This document shows, piece by piece, positions 35,033 through 44,450 of a stretch of 64,000 nucleotides of DNA. This DNA comes from Immundisolibacterales bacterium (GTDB lineage: Bacteria > Pseudomonadota > Gammaproteobacteria > HK1). The translations under genes were made by a program, and so were the position numbers. Location: contig JAPOPW010000074.1 in the NCBI GenBank assembly GCA_026712715.1, forward strand, positions 62,001 to 126,000, written 5' to 3'. The notes below the pieces were generated by a model. It was not told the origin of the DNA and did not search any database. It was given only the letters and a program-made list of their open reading frames with translations. The first letter of the stretch is position 1. The number at the start of each line of letters is the position of its first letter.

Positions 35033-35740
35033 ATGCTCGTCTTCCTGCTCGCGGGCGGGGTGAAGGGGGTGGTCGGCCTCGGCCTCCCGACGGTCGCGGT
35101 CGCGCTGCTCTCGGCCACTTTCGGCATCGAGGCGGCGCTCCCCCTGCTCGTCATTCCGTCCTTCGTGACGAACGTCTGGCAGGGAGCGATCGGGGGCCAC
35201 GCGGCGGCGTTGTTCCGGCGCTTCGGAATCGCGCTCGCAATCGTTCCCGTCACGACCTGGGTGGGCTACCACTACGTCTTCGTTGCGGCTCCGGACGCGA
35301 TGGAACGGGTGCTCGGGGCCGTACTACTCTTCTACGCGGCCCTCGGGCTTCGCAGCGCACGGTTCCGCGTGCCGTCGCGGGCGGAGGCGGTGCTGACCCC
35401 GGCGGTCGGCATCGTCAACGGCCTCGTCACCGGTGTGACCGGCACGTTCGTGGTCCCCATCGTGATGTACCTCGAGGCGCTCGGTCTCGACCGCGACCAG
35501 CTCGTGCAGATGATGGGCATCGCGTTCAGCGTGTCCACCGCGGCCCTCGCGGTGGTGCTCGTCCTGCACGGGGCGTATCGGCTCGAAGCGGGGTACGTGT
35601 CGGCGGTCGCGGTCCTTCCCGCCATTGCCGGCATGGTCGCCGGGGCGCGCCTGCGCGTGCGTCTGACCCCGGCCGCGTTCCGGAAGTGGCTGCTCGTCGC
35701 CCTCGCCCTCCTCGGTCTCAAGCTCCTGGTCGCCGGCTGA
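35033..35740 (+). CDS. Sulfite exporter TauE/SafE-family (TSUP) permease
   Basis: This membrane protein of about 235 residues has seven or eight hydrophobic segments. Signatures are GGVKGVVGLGLPTVAVALL at the start and VGIVNGLVTGVTGTFVVPIVMYLEALGL, the second repeat of the family. Members export sulfite, sulfoacetate or other organosulfur anions. The start is uncertain: ATG 35033 has no ribosome site, while GGGGAGG at 34994-35000 sits ahead of in-frame codons that include no ATG, GTG or TTG. A rare ATC start at 35006 would fit that site and supply the first helix. Confidence 0.82.
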   Translation: MLVFLLAGGVKGVVGLGLPTVAVALLSATFGIEAALPLLVIPSFVTNVWQGAIGGHAAALFRRFGIALAIVPVTTWVGYHYVFVAAPDAMERVLGAVLLFYAALGLRSARFRVPSRAEAVLTPAVGIVNGLVTGVTGTFVVPIVMYLEALGLDRDQLVQMMGIAFSVSTAALAVVLVLHGAYRLEAGYVSAVAVLPAIAGMVAGARLRVRLTPAAFRKWLLVALALLGLKLLVAG

Positions 35741-35960: not shown

Positions 35961-37193
35961 ATGGCGCGACTCTGCGACCTCCCCGAGGCGATGGCAGAAC
36001 ATCTCCGAAGTCTGCCGCTCCCCGAATTCGACGATACCGCCCTCGCGGCCGGACCGCCGCTCGCCGAGCGCCGGGTGGCCATCGTGACGAGCGCCGGCCT
36101 CGTGCGCCGCGGCGAAGACGCGTTCGCGCCCGGGGACGCCGACTACCGGGTCATTCCCGGGGACGTCCAGGGCGCGGACCTCCTCATGAGCCACATCTCG
36201 GTCAACTACGACCGCTCGGGCTTCGTCGAGGACACGAACGTGGTGTTCCCGATCGACCGATTGCGCGAGCTCGAGGCGGAGGGAACCATCGGCTCGGTCG
36301 CCGAACATCACTACAGCTTCATGGGCGCGACGGACCCCGAGAAGATGGCCGCGCCGGCCGCCCGGGTCGCGGGTCACCTCGCGGCCGACCGGGTGGATGC
36401 GGTCCTCCTCACCCCGGTCTGACCCAACTGCACGCGCGCCGTGAGCGCGCTCGCCCACTACTTCGAACGGGCCGGGATCCCCACCGTCGTCACCAGCCTC
36501 GTGCGCGAGCACAGCGAGTCGATCCGGCCGCCCCGGACCCTCTGGACCTCCTTCGAGCTCGGCCGCCCCCTCGGCGCGCCGGGGGATGCGACATTCCAGC
36601 GCCGGGTGCTCCTCGCCGCCCTCGGACTTCTCGCGGAGACGGCGGGACCGGTGCTCGCGGATTTCCCCGAGGACGCACCGGGGGTCTCGACAGGCGATGC
36701 GGGGAACGCCGGCTGGGCCTGTCCCGTGAGCCTTCCGAAGCCGGAGGGGTCCGACCCCGGGAGCCTCGTGGCGCAGGTTGCGCAGGAGGTACGAAGCCTC
36801 GCCCCGTGGCACGAACGGGCGCGCGAGCGCCGCGGCGGCCGCACCACGGTCGGCCTTTCGGGTCTCCCACCCGATGGGATCGTCGAGTTTCTCGCGGGCT
36901 ACGCCGAGCGCGGCGAGGAGACGAGCCCGCGCGACGGCATCGCCTTCTCCCGCTTCCTCAAGCACGCCCTCGACGACCTCCTCGCCTGGTATCAGGAGGC
37001 GGCGACGGCGCAACCGGGTGCGACTCCGTCCGGCCGGGAGCTTGCGGCGTGGTTCTGGGGCGAGACGCGGGCGAGCCGCCTGTTTCTCGCCGTACGCGAC
37101 CGCGGGGCCGCGAGCGAGGACCCCGCGATACGCCTGGTCGCGAAGCTCCTCCTCGTCCCCCGCAGCGCGAGCGCCTGGATCCCCCCCGCCTGA
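35961..37193 (+). CDS. Selenoprotein of the glycine/sarcosine/betaine (D-proline) reductase B family, UGA-encoded Sec154
   Basis: One 410-codon gene is interrupted by an in-frame TGA at 36420-36422. The flanking frames are in phase and read LLTPV-U-PNCTRAVSALAHYF, giving a U-x-x-C redox motif (Sec154, Cys157) like the UxxC of GrdB and PrdB. Upstream VAIVTSAGLVRRGEDAF, DYRVIPGDV and HYSFMGATDP, and downstream GIPTVVTSLVREHSESIRPPR and ELGRPLGAPGDATFQRRVLLAAL, match the family on both sides of the UGA. A GC hairpin 11 bases after the UGA fits a bacterial SECIS. Family members reduce substrates through a selenol; the substrate here is unknown. Conventional calling would leave two fragments, 35961-36422 and 36441-37193. 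No selA, selB, selC or selD lies in the window. Confidence 0.85.
36434..36450 (+). promoter_or_regulatory. Candidate bacterial SECIS hairpin
   Basis: GCGCGC at 36434-36439 pairs with GCGCGC at 36445-36450 around a five-base loop, CGTGA, which has G as its second base. The loop begins 18 bases after the UGA, inside the spacing that bacterial SelB-binding hairpins use. Stem and spacing are seen directly; SelB binding is inference. Confidence 0.55.
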
Positions 37194-37338: not shown

Positions 37339-38541
37339 TTGAAGCGAAACGAGCTCATGGCGGGATTCCCGCCGAGCGCGGCGGGCCAGGTCACGCTCGC
37401 TAACTGGCGCCGGGCGCCGTTCAACAAGTGGTCGTTCACGCACTTGCGCGAGCTGATCCCGAGCGCCGGGATCGCCGCCGATCCGGGCGCCGTCTCGCAG
37501 ATGCCGGTCGCGGGCGTCGAGCTCGAAGGGGTGGAGTTCGAGTTCGACGGCTCGCGCTACGACCTCGGGCGCTTTCTCGCCGAGACGGACACGGACGGAA
37601 TGCTCGTCCTGAGGGCGGACAGGATCGTCCACGAGCACTACGGGGCCGGCATGGATGCGGCGACCCCGCACTTCTTCGCGTCCGTCACGAAGTCGGTGCT
37701 CGGGCTCGTCGCGGGCATCCTCGCCGGCCGTGGCACGATCGACGCAGGAGCCCCGGTGACCGATTGGATCCCCGAGGTCGCGGAGACCGCCTGGGCCGGC
37801 GCGACCCTGCGCGACCTCCTCGACATGCGGGTGGGCATCCGGTTCGACGAGGACTACCTCGCCACGTCGGGCGCGATCATCGAGTACCGGAAGGCGCAGG
37901 GCTGGGACCCCCTCGCGCCCGGGGAGGAGCCGTCGGACCTGCGCTCCTTCTTCCGGACCCTGACGGCGCGGGACGGCCCGCATGCCGGAGCCTTCCACTA
38001 CGTCTCGCCCAACACCGACCTCCTCGGCTGGGTCATCGAGCGGGCGGCCGGGCGGCGCTACGTGGACCTCGTGAGCGAGCTCCTGTGGAAACCTATGGGC
38101 GCGGCGGCCGACGCGTACGTCACCGTCGACCGGCTGGGCGCCCCCCGGGCCGCCGGCGGCATGTGCGCGACCCTTCGCGATCTTGCGCGGATCGGACAGC
38201 TCGTCGCCAACCGGGGCCGCCGCGACGGGAAGGAGGTGGTCCCCGCCGACTGGATCGAGGACATCCTCGGCGCGGGCGATCCGTCGGCCTGGGACGCGGG
38301 CGACTTCGCGCCCTACTTCCCGGGCCTGGACGCCCACTACCGCAGCAAGTGGTACGTGCGCCGCGGCGCCGCTCCGTTGGCGTTCGGCGTCGGCGTGTAC
38401 GGACAAAACGTCTTCGCGGATCCCGAGAACGGCATCGTGATCGCCAAGTTCTCGTCGCAGGCCCCGCCCCTGGACGAACGCCTCATTGCGCTCACCATGC
38501 GCGGCGTCGAGTCCATCCGCCACCATCTCGCGGGGGGCTGA
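37339..38541 (+). CDS. Serine hydrolase, beta-lactamase class C / 6-aminohexanoate-dimer hydrolase type
   Basis: The protein has about 400 residues. The active-site motifs are FASVTKSVLGLVAG (S-x-x-K), HYVSPNTDLLGW (the Y-x-N equivalent) and the C-terminal AKFSSQAPP strand. VTLANWRRAPFNKWSFTHLRELIPSA is a conserved N-terminal signature of cytoplasmic esterases and amidases of this group. No signal peptide is present, so it is not a secreted beta-lactamase. TTG 37339 is preferred because GGGGAG lies 8 bases upstream; ATG 37357 is the alternative. The 299 bases after it hold no gene I recognise. Confidence 0.83.
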   Translation: MKRNELMAGFPPSAAGQVTLANWRRAPFNKWSFTHLRELIPSAGIAADPGAVSQMPVAGVELEGVEFEFDGSRYDLGRFLAETDTDGMLVLRADRIVHEHYGAGMDAATPHFFASVTKSVLGLVAGILAGRGTIDAGAPVTDWIPEVAETAWAGATLRDLLDMRVGIRFDEDYLATSGAIIEYRKAQGWDPLAPGEEPSDLRSFFRTLTARDGPHAGAFHYVSPNTDLLGWVIERAAGRRYVDLVSELLWKPMGAAADAYVTVDRLGAPRAAGGMCATLRDLARIGQLVANRGRRDGKEVVPADWIEDILGAGDPSAWDAGDFAPYFPGLDAHYRSKWYVRRGAAPLAFGVGVYGQNVFADPENGIVIAKFSSQAPPLDERLIALTMRGVESIRHHLAGG

Positions 38542-38840: not shown

Positions 38841-40568
38841 TCAGCCCTGCGCGGCGCCCCCGTTCTCTCGGCGGAGGGCGCTCGACGGCGCGAACCGATC
38901 GAGCACCTGCCCCGGTCCCCGCCCGTTCGTGACGTAGTCGGAGCCGTCGAAGACCTCGACCCCGTTGCAGAACACCCCGTGGATCCCGAGCGGCCGGCGG
39001 ATCGTGCGCCGGCCGCCCCCCGGGAGGTCCGCGACCCGTTCGCTCGCGGTGACCCCGACCGTCTCCGGGTCGAACAGCAGGAGGTCCGCCCAGGCGCCCG
39101 TCTCGATCCGCCCGCGGTCGGGGATCCCGTAAAGGTCCGCGGGGTGGCTGGTGAGACGCCGCACCCCGTCGGCGATGTCGAACTCGCCGAGCTCCCGCAC
39201 CCAGTGGGAGAGGAAGTGAAGGCCGTAGCCCGCTTCGCACATGAAGGTGAGGTGCGCCCCCGCGTCGGAAAGGGCGACGACTCCCGCCTCGTGCTTCAGC
39301 AGCCGCGCGACGCCCTCGTCGCCCACGTTGAGGAACTGCCCGATGAACATGGTCTCGAGGTTCTCCTCGAGACCGAGGTCGAACATCGTGTCGAGGGGGT
39401 CCGCTCCCCGCTCCGCCGCGATGTCCGCGATGGTCCGGTCCGCGAGCCCGTCGTTCTTCGCGAGGGCGGGGACCGCGACCACCACCCGGTCCCAGTTGCC
39501 CTGGAAGATGAGACCGGGCCGGGGGTTGGCGAGGCTCGCGCGGAAACGGTCCCGAAACTCCCGGCTGCCGAAGTAGGGAACGAGCCGTTCGCGTCCGTAC
39601 GCCTTCACCTCCGAGAAAGCGTCGTGGCTGAAGAAGGGATACGCGTTCGCCAGGGTGAAGTCGAACGACAGCGGCTGGCAGGGGATCTGGATGTACACCG
39701 GGTTGCCGCGCGCCTGCGCGGCCCGGCACGCCTCGAACATCCCGATGGAGCGCTCGGGCGCCTGCTCGTTGTACATCGCCGCTCCCGTCCCCTTGAACAC
39801 GGCCCGTCCGTGGCGGCCGGCGACCGCCTCGATCTCTTCGACGGTCTTCGCCCCGGAAGCGAGCTGCACGATTCCGGCCGGACGGGACCCCATGGCGCCG
39901 ACGAGCGCATCGAACTCCGAGAGATCGGTGATCGTCGAGGGCATCGGGACGCCCCCGTAGCCCGAGTGGTTGAGGGAATACGACGCTCCGAGCCCGATGG
40001 CCCCGCCGTCCATCGCCTCGGCCACCAGCGCCTTCATCCGCGCGAGCTCGTCCGGGGTCGCCTCGGCCCGTTCGGACGCCGCCTCGCCCATGACCGTGGT
40101 GCGGATGACGGAGTGGCCGGCGAGCACCGCGACGTTCGCCGCGGGCGCGATCGCGCGGAGCGCCGCCAGGTACTCGCCGAAGGTTTCGAATTCCCAGCGC
40201 ACCCCGGCGCGGAGAGCCTCGAGGTCCATGCCCTCGACGACCGAAAGATTGCGCAGGATGAGGTCCCGCACCGGCGGGGCGGCCGGCACGATCCCGAATC
40301 CGCAGTTGCCCATGACCACCGTGGTCACGCCGAGCGAGGGTGAGGGCGAGAGGGTGCGGTCCCAGGTAATCTGCGCGTCGTAGTGGGTGTGCAGGTCGAC
40401 GAATCCCGGCGCGAGGGTGAGGCCGCCCGCATCGATCTCGCGCTCCGCGGACTCGCGGACCGCTCCGACCTCGCCGATGCGCCCGTCGCGCACCGCGACG
40501 TCCGCCCGGACCGGTTCGTTGCCGAGGCCGTCGACGACGGTCGCCCCGCGGATGACGAGCTGATTCAT
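38841..40568 (-). CDS. N-acyl-D-amino-acid deacylase family amidohydrolase
   Basis: This 575-residue metal-dependent amidohydrolase has GFVDLHTHYDAQITWD (the HxH motif), GHSVIRTTVMG, GAIGLGASYSLNHSGYGG and LSDAGAHLTFM (the last metal Asp), all typical of D-aminoacylase/dihydroorotase-like enzymes. The length is right for the family. It is cytoplasmic. It is divergent from the GMC oxidoreductase. The exact N-acyl substrate is unknown. Confidence 0.87.
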   Translation of the reverse strand: MNQLVIRGATVVDGLGNEPVRADVAVRDGRIGEVGAVRESAEREIDAGGLTLAPGFVDLHTHYDAQITWDRTLSPSPSLGVTTVVMGNCGFGIVPAAPPVRDLILRNLSVVEGMDLEALRAGVRWEFETFGEYLAALRAIAPAANVAVLAGHSVIRTTVMGEAASERAEATPDELARMKALVAEAMDGGAIGLGASYSLNHSGYGGVPMPSTITDLSEFDALVGAMGSRPAGIVQLASGAKTVEEIEAVAGRHGRAVFKGTGAAMYNEQAPERSIGMFEACRAAQARGNPVYIQIPCQPLSFDFTLANAYPFFSHDAFSEVKAYGRERLVPYFGSREFRDRFRASLANPRPGLIFQGNWDRVVVAVPALAKNDGLADRTIADIAAERGADPLDTMFDLGLEENLETMFIGQFLNVGDEGVARLLKHEAGVVALSDAGAHLTFMCEAGYGLHFLSHWVRELGEFDIADGVRRLTSHPADLYGIPDRGRIETGAWADLLLFDPETVGVTASERVADLPGGGRRTIRRPLGIHGVFCNGVEVFDGSDYVTNGRGPGQVLDRFAPSSALRRENGGAAQG

Positions 40569-40636
40569 GAATTACCATCCCCACCGGAACTCGGATGTCC
40601 CAGAGGATAACCGCTCGCGATAGAGGATTGAGAGCA

Positions 40637-42235
40637 ATGGAATTCGACTACGTCATCGTCGGAGCCGGCTCGGCCGGCTGCGTGCTTGCCCACCGTCTCT
40701 CCGAGGACCCGCGCAACCGGGTGGCCCTCCTCGAGGCGGGAGGCCGCGACAAGAACATCTGGATCCACCTTCCGGTCGGCTTCGCGAAGACCCTGAACGA
40801 TCCGACGGTGAACTGGCTCTTCGAGACCGAGCCGGACGAGAAGACCCGGAACCGCCCGATCCCGATCCCGCGCGGCAAGGTCCTCGGCGGGTCGAGCTCC
40901 ATCAACGGGATGCTCTACATCCGGGGCCATCCCCGCGACTACGACATCTGGGCTCAGCTCGGAAACCGGGGCTGGTCCTTCGACGACGTGCTCCCCTACT
41001 TCAAGCGTTCGGAGAATCAGGAACGGGGGGCGGACGAGTTCCACGGGGTCGGCGGCCCGCTCAACGTCTCCGACCAGCTCGAGACGCACCCGATGTGCGA
41101 CGCGATCATCGAAGCGGCGGAGAATTGCGGCTACCCCCACAACCGGGACGTGAACGGCGCGTCCCAGGACGGCTTCGGCTACTGCCAGGCCACGATTCGG
41201 AAGGGACGGCGCGCGAGCGCCGCCCAGGCGTTTCTCGCCCCGGTGCGGTCACGCCCGAACCTCACCGTGCTGACCCAGGCGCCCACCACCAGGGTCCTGT
41301 TCGAGGGGAAGCGGGCGGTCGGGGTGGAATATTCGCAGCACGGCGAGCGCAAGACGGTCCGCGCCGCGCGGGAAGTGATCCTGTGCGGCGGCGCGATCAA
41401 CTCGCCGCAGATCCTCGAGCTCTCGGGGGTCGGGGACGGCGAACGCCTGCGCGGGCTCGGCATCGAGGCCGTCCACCACCTGCCGGGAGTCGGAGAGAAT
41501 CTTCAGGACCATTTCGCGGTCCGGATGTCCTGGCAGGTGACCGGGACCGTCACCTACAACGAAAGGACGCGGGGGCTCAGTCTGGTTCGAGAGGGCCTGC
41601 GCTACCTGTGGAACCGCACCGGCATCCTCGCCCTGTGCGCCGCGAACGTCACCGGCTACGTCCGGACCCGGGAAGAGGTGGAGACGCCGGACGTCCAGTA
41701 CTTCATGGCCCCGGCAAGCTTCGCGGACTCGCAGGACCGGGCCCTCGACACGGAGCCCGGAATGTCGATCGGGTTCTGCGTCCTTCGACCGGAGTCGATC
41801 GGCACGGTGCACGCGAAGTCGTCCGACCCGTTCTCCGCGCCCGCAATCCGGCCGAACTTCCTGGACTCGAAGGTCGATCGCGATGCGATTGTCGAAGGCA
41901 CCCGCATCGCGCGCCGGATCGTGGAGGCGCCGCCCATGGACCCCTACCGGGGACCGGAGCTGATGCCGGGAGGCGAGGCGCAGACGTACGACGAGCTGCT
42001 CGACTACGCCCGCGACACCGGGACCACCGTGTATCACCCGGTGGGCACCTGCAAGATGGGGAGCGATCCCAGGGCGGTGGTGGACGATCGGCTGAGGGTT
42101 CACGGGCTCGACGGCCTCCGGGTTGCGGACGCGTCCATCATGCCGACCCTGGTCTCGGGAAACACCAACGCCCCCGTCATCATGATTGGAGAGAAGGCGG
42201 CGGACCTCGTCCGCGAGGACGCCGGGATGCGGTGA
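40637..42235 (+). CDS. GMC-family FAD oxidoreductase (choline dehydrogenase-like)
   Basis: The 532-residue protein starts with the FAD-binding [23 protein letters not shown] signature 1 is [24 protein letters not shown], signature 2 is [16 protein letters not shown], and the catalytic His region is [13 protein letters not shown]. It belongs to the BetA-like alcohol dehydrogenase group; the alcohol it oxidises is unknown, and no betaine aldehyde dehydrogenase is next to it. AGAGGATTGAGAG precedes the ATG; two earlier in-frame ATGs would add unconserved residues. Confidence 0.9.
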
Positions 42236-42475
42236 CGGCGCGGGAATCCGGGGATTTCGGCGCAAGCGGGCAGGACCGGCCGGAAGCGCGCGTCCGCGCC
42301 GGCCGGCGGCCGCCGGCCTCGCCGATTCCGGCGCTTCGCGCCGTTGCAGCGGCCCGAAGGAGCACGGTTCAACACCACGAGCGAATTGGCGTTCGGCCGG
42401 CGGGATGTCGGCGGAGCCCACGGGATAGAATGCGGGCCGCGCGCGACGGCGCGCGACGCACAAGGGGGAAGTTCG

Positions 42476-43477
42476 ATGTCCGAGAGCCGCGATCCGGTCG
42501 AATGGTACCGGCGCATGCGGCGCCTTCGCCGCTTCGAGATGCGGGCAGCGGAGCTCGTCGGGGAAGGCGAGATCGCCGGGCCGGTACACGAGTACATCGG
42601 CGAGGAGGCGGTCGCGGTCGGGGTGTGCGCGGCGCTTCGCGCGGACGACGTCATCACGAGCACCCACCGGGGGCACGGCCATATCCTCGCCAAGGGGGGA
42701 GCCCCCGACCGCATGTACGCGGAGCTGCTCGGGCGCGACAGCGGGTACAACCGCGGGCGCGGGGGCTCCATGCACATCGCGGACTTCGCGCTCGGCATCT
42801 TCGGCGCGAACGGAATCGTCGGCGCGGGGGCCCCGATGGCCTGCGGCGCCGCGTACACCTTCAAGCTCCGGGGCGAAGACCGCGTCGCCGTCCCCTTCTT
42901 CGGCGACGGCGCCATGAACCAGGGAGTCCTGCTCGAGTCGTTCAACCTTGCCGTGGTTGTCGATCTCCCGGTGGTCTTCGCGTGCGAGAACAACGGGTAC
43001 GCGATTTCGTCGCCGATCGATGAAATGCTCGGGGGCGAGCTCGTCGAGCGGGCGGCGGGATTCGGGCTCCCCGTCCGGTCGGTGGACGGCATGGACGTGC
43101 GCGCGGTGCACGCCGCCACCAGCGCCGCCGTCGAGCGCGCTCGGGCGGGCGGCGGTCCGACCTTCCTCGAATTCCGGACCGCCCGGTACTCCGTGCACAA
43201 CATCGCGACCGGCGCGCGGATGCGCGACAGCCGTTCGGAAGAGATGCTCGCGCAAGCGCGCGGCCGCGACCCGCTCGAACGGCTCGCGGGCGAGCTCAGC
43301 GGCAACGGCGGCTGGGGCGCGGGCGGCCGCGAAGCGGTCGACGACGAGATCGAGCGCGAGCTCGAGGGCGCAATCGGGTTCGCCCGCAACAGCCCCCGGC
43401 CGCGCCCCGAGACCGCCCTCGACTACATGTACGCCGACACCTATCCGGACTTTCCCGCACCGGGCTGGGAGCAGTAG
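42476..43477 (+). CDS. 2-oxo acid dehydrogenase E1 alpha subunit
   Basis: This 333-residue ThDP-binding alpha subunit belongs to the PDH/acetoin dehydrogenase class. The signature ITSTHRGHGHILAKG and the ThDP motif FFGDGAMNQGVLLESFNLA to VFACENNGYA are intact. AAGGGGGAAG precedes the ATG at 42476. The beta subunit follows four bases after the stop. No E2 or E3 gene is in the window, so the pair must borrow them or act differently; the substrate is not resolved. Confidence 0.88.
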   Translation: MSESRDPVEWYRRMRRLRRFEMRAAELVGEGEIAGPVHEYIGEEAVAVGVCAALRADDVITSTHRGHGHILAKGGAPDRMYAELLGRDSGYNRGRGGSMHIADFALGIFGANGIVGAGAPMACGAAYTFKLRGEDRVAVPFFGDGAMNQGVLLESFNLAVVVDLPVVFACENNGYAISSPIDEMLGGELVERAAGFGLPVRSVDGMDVRAVHAATSAAVERARAGGGPTFLEFRTARYSVHNIATGARMRDSRSEEMLAQARGRDPLERLAGELSGNGGWGAGGREAVDDEIERELEGAIGFARNSPRPRPETALDYMYADTYPDFPAPGWEQ

Positions 43478-43481
43478 TTCC

Positions 43482-44450
43482 ATGCGCGAGATGACTTACA
43501 TTCAGGCGCTCAACGAGGCGCTCCACCAGGCGATGTCCGAGGATTCCGCCGTGTTCGTCCTCGGCGAGAACATCCGCGGCGGCATGCGCCCGGAGACGGC
43601 CGGGCTCGACGATGCGTTCGCGCCGGGACGGGTGCTGGACATGCCGATCTCGGAGGCCGCGTTCACGGGTTTCGCCAACGGGGCGGCGCTTGCCGGGATG
43701 CGGCCGGTGGTGGAGTTCCAGGTCGCGTCCCTCATGTTCCCCGCCTTCGATCAGATCGTGAACCAGGCCGCGAAGCTGCCCCTGATGCTGGGCGGGCAGG
43801 CGCACATTCCGATCACGTTCTTCCTCATGGGGGCGGGCGCCGGGGGCGGGCGCGCCGGCCAGCATTCGGACAACCCCTACACCTTCCTCATCCACGCCGG
43901 GATCAAGACGGTCTGTCCTGCGACCCCCGCCGATGCGAAGGGTCTCATGCTGGCCGCGATCTTCGAGAACGACCCGGTGGCGGTCGTCGTCAACGCCAAC
44001 CTGCTCCGGACGACCGGCGAGGTGCCGGCCGGGAGCGAACGAACGCCGCTCGCGAACGGGAAGGTGCGCCGCGCCGGCCGGGACGCGACGGTCTGCGCGA
44101 TCGGAAGCCTCGTGCCCGCCGCGCTCGAGGCGGCGGAACGGCTCACCGCCGACGGCATCGAGGTGGAGGTCTGGGACCCCCGCAGCCTCCTCCCCTTCGA
44201 CAAGGAGGGGCTCGCCGCGTCGGTCGCGAAGACCGGAAGGCTCGTGGTCGCGGACGACTCCGCGCGGACCTGCGGGTTCGCGGCGGAGGTCGCGGGTCTC
44301 GCAGCCGAGCGCTGCTTCGACTCCCTCCGCGCCCCCATCAAGCGGGTCACCCGGGCCGACGTGACCGTGCCGTACAGCACCCCGATCGAGCACGCCATGC
44401 TGCCCGCGGCCGGCGAGGTCGAAGCCGCCGTCCGTGCGATCGCGGCCTGA
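43482..44450 (+). CDS. 2-oxo acid dehydrogenase E1 beta subunit
   Basis: This 322-residue beta subunit has transketolase-type pyrimidine and C-terminal domains. Motifs are FVLGENIRGG, VLDMPISEAAFTGFANGAAL, RPVVEFQVASLMFPAFDQIVNQAAKL and, in the C-terminal domain, GRDATVCAIGSLVPAALEAAE. It is co-transcribed with the alpha subunit. The 176 bases after it hold nothing clear. Confidence 0.88.
   Translation: MREMTYIQALNEALHQAMSEDSAVFVLGENIRGGMRPETAGLDDAFAPGRVLDMPISEAAFTGFANGAALAGMRPVVEFQVASLMFPAFDQIVNQAAKLPLMLGGQAHIPITFFLMGAGAGGGRAGQHSDNPYTFLIHAGIKTVCPATPADAKGLMLAAIFENDPVAVVVNANLLRTTGEVPAGSERTPLANGKVRRAGRDATVCAIGSLVPAALEAAERLTADGIEVEVWDPRSLLPFDKEGLAASVAKTGRLVVADDSARTCGFAAEVAGLAAERCFDSLRAPIKRVTRADVTVPYSTPIEHAMLPAAGEVEAAVRAIAA

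What the first reader, a model, noticed from the sequence alone, without database searches (positions are those of the whole stretch)
35961..37193. Selenoprotein hidden by an in-frame UGA (U-P-N-C)
Two adjacent open frames (35961-36422 and 36441-37193) are in phase across a TGA at 36420, and both halves match the glycine/proline reductase B family. The join reads LLTPV-U-PNCTRAV, a UxxC redox motif. A 6-bp GC hairpin with a CGTGA loop starts 11 bases after the UGA, the position of a bacterial SECIS. Conventional calling would lose or split the gene. Related UxxC proteins occur in marine and alphaproteobacterial genomes, usually with unknown substrates. The join is seen in sequence; selenocysteine insertion is inference.
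Basis: partly seen in the sequence, partly recalled or inferred. Interest (0 to 1): 0.9.

Follow-up and report, generated by a model that had tools for sequence, protein, structure and literature searches.

The report
Selenocysteine gene split by a UGA
A gene that looks cut in two by a stop codon is really one selenium-containing redox protein, belonging to a widespread and unstudied branch of a known selenoprotein family whose target molecule is still unknown.

Summary
Window 35961-37193 is one 410-residue frame interrupted by a TGA at 36420-36422, very likely read as selenocysteine. The genome carries selA, selB, selD and a tRNA-Sec. Every full-length long-form relative examined (83 distinct rows including the window, several phyla, 44-86% identical to it) keeps the TGA in a V/I-U-P-x-C-T motif; selB is over cut-off in 42 of 46 carrier genomes tested. 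In the related short form the same position alternates between Sec and Cys. The hairpin meets the published bSECIS criteria and is held by synonymous codon choice and coordinated base-pair changes. It is not a D-proline or glycine reductase subunit: it falls far below the PrdB cut-off (102 against 300 bits), lacks GrdB's second cysteine, and no PrdA/GrdE-type partner was found. It belongs to a distinct 'long form' clade: a PrdB-like half plus a helical C-terminal domain with no Pfam and no clear PDB match. No Cys long form was found. UxxC 'PrdB' selenoproteins have been reported in ocean metagenomes since 2005, so the kind is known; this branch, its extra domain and its substrate are not described in the papers I could search. 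Most likely a partner-free, thiol-recycled selenol reductase.

The parts
35961..37193 (+). Complete long-form PrdB-like selenoprotein gene (410 residues, Sec154; stop TGA at 37191-37193)
   Evidence: relatives start at the equivalent M-x-R
36420..36422 (+). In-frame UGA, codon 154, read as selenocysteine
   Evidence: TGA in every full-length long-form relative examined; Cys in short-form homologues
36429..36431 (+). Cys157, second residue of the U-P-N-C motif; invariant in the 55-row alignment
36434..36450 (+). bSECIS hairpin: 6-bp stem 36434-36439 / 36445-36450, loop CGTGA 36440-36444
   Evidence: published criteria
36057..36638 (+). PrdB/GrdB-like alpha/beta domain (residues 33-226), spanning the UGA
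   Evidence: TIGR04483 alignment 33-226; model
36744..37190 (+). C-terminal all-helical domain (residues 262-410), no Pfam family

Best explanation
One gene encodes a 410-residue selenoprotein. SelB brings Sec-tRNA-Sec to UGA 36420 through the hairpin 36434-36450. The predicted fold places Sec154 just after a central strand (147-151) and directly before a helix (155-170), a usual site for a reactive nucleophile, with Cys157 three residues on. Best-supported mechanism: the selenolate attacks an oxidised or electrophilic small molecule, Cys157 resolves the intermediate as a selenenylsulfide, and a cellular thiol system such as thioredoxin regenerates it. It works without the pyruvoyl PrdA/GrdE partner of the Stickland reductases; the C-terminal helical domain may shape the active site instead. 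Shown from sequence: reading through the UGA, conserved U-P-x-C, selected hairpin, decoding genes, no detectable partner. Inferred: selenium in the protein, the chemistry, the recycling route, the role of the C-terminal domain. Unknown: the substrate. Sec insertion alone I put at about 0.97; the proposed partner-free selenol reductase chemistry at about 0.6.
For: Decoding set in the same genome: tRNA-Sec 72.5 bits, selB 414 bits, selA 546 bits, selD 292 bits, all over cut-off; selA-selB adjacent on C80, tRNA-Sec and selD about 1.5 kb apart on C66. TGA in all full-length long-form copies examined. selB over cut-off in 42 of 46 carrier genomes against 2 of 14 control genomes. Sec/Cys exchange in the short form, e.g. 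LVANUPVCHQ (own genome) against LVPNCPVCHQ. Profile aligns through the UGA. Purifying selection on both sides. Hairpin: 5.46 of 6 pairs on average against 3.37 with synonymous codons redrawn, highest of 100 replicates 3.63; Thr ACG 74 of 80 against 33% background. Second stem pair: 82 of 83 paired, 64 C-G and 18 T-A, 4 changes on the tree. A selD-like gene lies next to the gene in 7 loci. No PrdA or GrdE-type gene in the genome; PF09338 over cut-off in only 7 of 24 carrier genomes, which also shows that the search works. Cytochrome oxidase present.
Against: No protein-level or selenium data. On the window sequence alone the hairpin is not exceptional: 12% of synonymous redraws also give 6 pairs. 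About half of the relatives carry a G.G mismatch in the stem and fail my strict perfect-stem test (40 of 80 pass). The C-G to T-A change has at most 3 independent contrasts on the tree, 1 on well-supported branches. No conserved operon partner points to a substrate. The redox mechanism rests on motif and fold position, not on an assay.
Confidence: 0.65

Rival explanations
1. It is a true D-proline reductase PrdB or glycine/betaine/sarcosine reductase B subunit, working with a pyruvoyl-type partner in a Stickland reaction.
For: Best profile match is PrdB (E 2.7e-29); TIGR01918 and PF07355 over cut-off.
Against: 102 bits against the PrdB cut-off of 300, and far under the GrdB, GrdF and GrdH cut-offs. 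The second Cys of GrdB's UxxCxxC is absent (U-P-N-C-T-R-A). No PrdA or PF09338 in the genome, and 16 of 24 carrier genomes have no PF09338 match at all. The organism has a haem-copper oxidase. No prdA/grdE-like gene stood out among recurrent neighbours.
Confidence: 0.05
2. The TGA is a genuine stop: two separate genes, a frame-broken pseudogene, or a sequencing error.
For: Conventional calling gives two ORFs, and a GTG start exists at 36441.
Against: Same TGA in all full-length relatives from independent assemblies; the motif before GTG 36441 (U-P-x-C-T) is conserved; purifying selection on both sides; complete Sec machinery.
Confidence: 0.02
3. It is a selenoprotein, but a detoxification enzyme (peroxide, disulfide or sulfoxide reductase) rather than an enzyme that cleaves a C-N or other C-X bond of a metabolite.
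For: Aerobic-type genome, UxxC motif, an AhpD-like small gene just upstream in three betaproteobacterial loci (L051, L083, L097, family named from sequence resemblance only), no substrate-specific operon.
Against: The sequence family is PrdB/GrdB, whose characterised members cleave C-N bonds and, for the GrdB-like FarB, are proposed to cleave a C-F bond (PMC10838667); no thioredoxin-fold match among the structural hits.
Confidence: 0.35

Closest known systems
'Proline reductase PrdB' UxxC selenoproteins of ocean metagenomes (Sargasso Sea 2005, PMC1088965; GOS 2008, PMC2398784)
   Same: PrdB/PF07355-type, UxxC motif, bacterial SECIS, mostly Sec; 42 and then 235 sequences reported
   Different: Those papers do not separate a long and a short form in the passages read; GOS lists 110 Cys homologues, whereas no Cys copy of the long form was found here. 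Whether their set contains this long form could not be tested.
D-proline reductase PrdB (TIGR04483)
   Same: Alignable over residues 33-226 through the Sec
   Different: Scores 102 of the 300 bits needed; no PrdA found; extra C-terminal helical domain
Glycine/sarcosine/betaine reductase selenoprotein B (GrdB/F/H; TIGR01918 group)
   Same: Over the TIGR01918 subfamily cut-off (73.6 against 65.45) and the PF07355 gathering score; matches the Sec-bearing C-terminal half of GrdB
   Different: Lacks the N-terminal ~200 positions of the GrdB model and the second C of UxxCxxC; no GrdE found
Short-form PrdB-like (Sec/Cys) proteins in the same class and phylum, including a second copy in this genome (G000:C29:81012-81644)
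   Same: Same domain, U/C-P-x-C-H motif, hairpin at a similar position
   Different: Separate clade on a 100%-supported branch; no long-form C-terminal domain; Cys versions common

Membership tests
Bacterial selenoprotein gene (Sec-decoded UGA) | selA, selB, selD and tRNA-Sec in the organism | tested here: met
   all over curated cut-offs
Bacterial selenoprotein gene (Sec-decoded UGA) | bSECIS: loop 3-9 nt, upper stem 4-16 bp, G in first two loop positions, UGA-loop spacing 16-37 nt, MFE <= -7.5 kcal/mol (PMC13188914) | tested here: met
   Loop CGUGA (5 nt), stem 6 bp, G at loop position 2, spacing 17 nt, hairpin -10.3 and region -12.8 kcal/mol
Bacterial selenoprotein gene (Sec-decoded UGA) | Homologues with Cys or Sec at the UGA | tested here: met
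   Sec codon in all full-length long-form copies; Cys/Sec alternation in the short form
Bacterial selenoprotein gene (Sec-decoded UGA) | Selenium in the protein (75Se label or mass spectrometry) | not testable with these tools
   Needs experiment
Glycine/betaine/sarcosine/D-proline reductase selenoprotein B superfamily (PF07355, TIGR01918) | Curated score cut-off | tested here: met
   PF07355 53.2 > 22 bits; TIGR01918 73.6 > 65.45; all 55 family members match TIGR01918 at E <= 0.001
D-proline reductase PrdB (TIGR04483) | Equivalog cut-off of 300 bits | tested here: not met
   102.3 bits
D-proline reductase PrdB (TIGR04483) | Pyruvoyl partner PrdA in the genome | tested here: not met
   No TIGR04480 match (no positive control rang for this model); no PF09338 match, and PF09338 does ring in other genomes; the draft genome is 98% complete
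Glycine reductase selenoprotein B (GrdB) | UxxCxxC motif (PMC13188914) | tested here: not met
   U-P-N-C-T-R-A; A or V at the place of the second Cys in all copies
Glycine reductase selenoprotein B (GrdB) | Activity on glycine, sarcosine or betaine | not testable with these tools
   Needs purified protein

The most novel reading that the evidence does not exclude
The long form is a separate selenoenzyme: an apparently obligately Sec-dependent, stand-alone reductase, spread across Pseudomonadota, Desulfobacterota, Chloroflexota, Nitrospinota and others, whose C-terminal helical domain replaces the PrdA/GrdE partner and which carries out a reductive cleavage not known for this superfamily.
Probability: 0.3. 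Interest if true: 0.75.

Novelty: new variant of a known kind. Interest (0 to 1): 0.45.

Why it matters
Standard ORF calling splits the gene and hides both its active site and its extra domain. The clade is widespread in marine, sediment and groundwater genomes, has the Sec codon in every copy examined, and has no assigned substrate. [quoted passage not shown] The conserved residues and the missing partner make its chemistry directly testable.

Tried and rejected
Operon reasoning: neighbours in 80 loci give no constant partner; a selD-like gene next door in 7, tandem long-form copies in 4, TctC-like, short-chain dehydrogenase and TetR-type genes sporadically. Structure search: the full model (pLDDT 90.8) and the C-terminal domain alone (pLDDT 93.7) gave no Foldseek match at E <= 0.001; the second look gave best Z 8.4 (rmsd 3.4, 136 aligned) for the whole, an ordinary alpha/beta arrangement, and 5.9 (rmsd 4.9, 107 aligned) for the helical domain; neither is informative. 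PDB sequence search with the family profile: nothing. Pfam on the C-terminal domain of 55 members: only chance-level hits. Literature searches for PF07355 selenoproteins and SAR202 selenoproteins gave no functional study. Truncated copy L026 was checked as a possible stop-type homologue: it lacks the whole N-terminal half and the UGA region, so it is a remnant, not a counter-example.

Full report
OBSERVATION. The window reads as described: ATG 35961, in-frame TGA 36420-36422, stop 37191-37193, join LLTPV-U-PNCTRAV. The hairpin GCGCGC-CGTGA-GCGCGC lies at 36434-36450, 11 bases after the UGA. The first half alone matches PF07355 (57 bits) and PrdB (78 bits). The second half alone matches nothing. 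The joined protein lets the PrdB profile run through the UGA to residue 226 at 102 bits. So only about 70 residues of the second half belong to the known family, and residues ~227-410 are outside it.

SEC DECODING. The genome (5.05 Mb, 82 contigs, 98% complete) has tRNA-Sec, selB, selA and selD, all over curated cut-offs. selA and selB are adjacent; tRNA-Sec and selD lie about 1.5 kb apart. The weaker tRNA-Sec and selB hits are below cut-off and of the kind that the control genomes also give.

CONSERVATION. In the window's GTDB family, 8 full-length copies (window included, the others 46-86% identical) all keep one in-frame TGA and no other stop. A scan of one genome for each of 84,980 species found at least 495 relatives; the best 80 were kept, and with 2 more from the class search all 82 carry TGA at the aligned codon, in the motif [VI]-U-P-x-C-T. 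These sets overlap slightly; the tree holds 83 distinct long-form rows. They come from bins labelled Alpha-, Beta- and Gammaproteobacteria, Desulfobacterota, Chloroflexota, Nitrospinota and Gemmatimonadaceae. selB is over cut-off in 42 of 46 carrier genomes tested. Searches of 369 class-level and 398 phylum-level genomes found no Cys version of the long form. Those searches did find short-form homologues with Cys at exactly this position (LVPNCPVCHQ) beside others with Sec (LVPTUPVCHQ, LVANUPVCHQ): the classical Sec/Cys exchange. Between the window and its 86%-identical relative, dN/dS is 0.30 before and 0.25 after the TGA.

HAIRPIN. The published model asks for a 3-9 nt loop, a 4-16 bp stem, G in the first two loop positions, 16-37 nt spacing and MFE <= -7.5 kcal/mol (PMC13188914). 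The window has 5 nt, 6 bp, G at position 2, 17 nt and -10.3 to -12.8 kcal/mol. Because the amino acids are conserved too, I redrew synonymous codons by each gene's own usage. The 80 natural sequences form 5.46 of 6 pairs on average, the redrawn sets 3.37, and the highest of 100 replicates 3.63. Codon choice is skewed exactly in the stem: Thr ACG 74 of 80 (33% in the genes overall), Arg CGC 60 of 61 (40%), Ala GCC 70 of 79 (41%), while the loop valine codon varies freely. The second stem pair is C-G in 64 and T-A in 18 of 83 rows, with 4 changes on a tree built without the hairpin columns. L025 carries changes on both sides of two neighbouring pairs, with Arg replaced by Ser, and still forms all six pairs. 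Limits: for the window sequence alone 12% of redraws reach 6 pairs; about half of the relatives have a G.G mismatch at the third pair; independent contrasts for the T-A pair are 3 at most, 1 on strong branches.

WHAT IT IS. Long and short forms are cleanly separated, each one side of a 100%-supported branch. The long form is uniformly about 390-430 residues and mostly begins M-x-R. AlphaFold2 gives a confident two-domain model (pLDDT 90.8): an alpha/beta domain with Sec154 between strand 147-151 and helix 155-170, then a helical domain (269-405). The helical domain alone is also confident (93.7) but has no useful Pfam match in 55 members and no clear PDB match; an unlisted structural relative is not excluded. 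Its conserved residues include E276, W283, R294-T295, D339, Y344, E346-A347, P352-G353 and W364. C254 is conserved in 98% of rows and could be a third redox residue (inference).

WHAT IT IS NOT. D-proline reductase needs PrdA, and glycine-type reductases need GrdE (established knowledge of these enzymes; PMC10838667). Neither PrdA nor PF09338 is found here. PF09338 is over cut-off in 7 of 24 carrier genomes, and one more has a sub-threshold match, so the search can see it, and most carriers do without. The UxxCxxC of GrdB is not present. The organism has a haem-copper oxidase, so it is probably capable of aerobic respiration.

MECHANISM. By analogy with characterised relatives, where the Sec attacks a carbon bearing a leaving group (C-N in the Stickland reductases; C-F proposed for the fluoroacetate reductase FarB, PMC10838667), I propose that Sec154 makes a nucleophilic attack on an oxidised or electrophilic substrate and that Cys157 releases it as a selenenylsulfide, recycled by a thiol system such as thioredoxin. 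Peroxide or disulfide reduction is the main rival for the substrate class. The N-terminus shows no signal peptide by eye, so the protein is probably cytosolic (inference). Context gives no substrate: the immediate neighbours are a TauE/SafE-type exporter (35033-35737) and a beta-lactamase-family hydrolase (37354-38538), and neither stood out as a recurrent neighbour.

NOVELTY. UxxC 'PrdB' selenoproteins have been counted among the commonest marine selenoproteins since 2005 (PMC1088965; PMC2398784). The finding is therefore of a known kind. What is not described in the papers I could search is the long-form clade, its extra helical domain, its apparent Sec-only state and its lack of a PrdA/GrdE partner.

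Noticed in passing
G000:C29:81012-81644 (L034, L127, L155): A second UGA-containing PrdB-like gene in the same genome, of the short form (LVANUPVCHQSV); its relatives in families f52 and f154 use Cys at that codon.
   Followed up: partly
L026 (G005:C1:3136933-3137544): Truncated remnant of the long form without its N-terminal half and the UGA, abutting an alcohol-dehydrogenase-like gene.
   Followed up: partly
L040, L044, L052, L094: Two long-form copies in tandem in these loci, suggesting duplication and possible heteromers.
   Followed up: no
L096, L112, L117: MAG records titled 'Bordetella parapertussis' carry the gene but group with Betaproteobacteria/Burkholderiales bins; probably a mislabelled bin name.
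   Followed up: no
window 35033-35737: TauE/SafE-family exporter directly upstream on the same strand; not a recurrent neighbour of the selenoprotein.
   Followed up: partly
window 38841-44447: Amidohydrolase, GMC oxidoreductase and a two-subunit E1 dehydrogenase set, an ordinary catabolic neighbourhood.
   Followed up: no
G000:C66:19507-21953 and C80:58447-61876: tRNA-Sec and selD lie about 1.5 kb apart, while selA-selB are adjacent on another contig.
   Followed up: no
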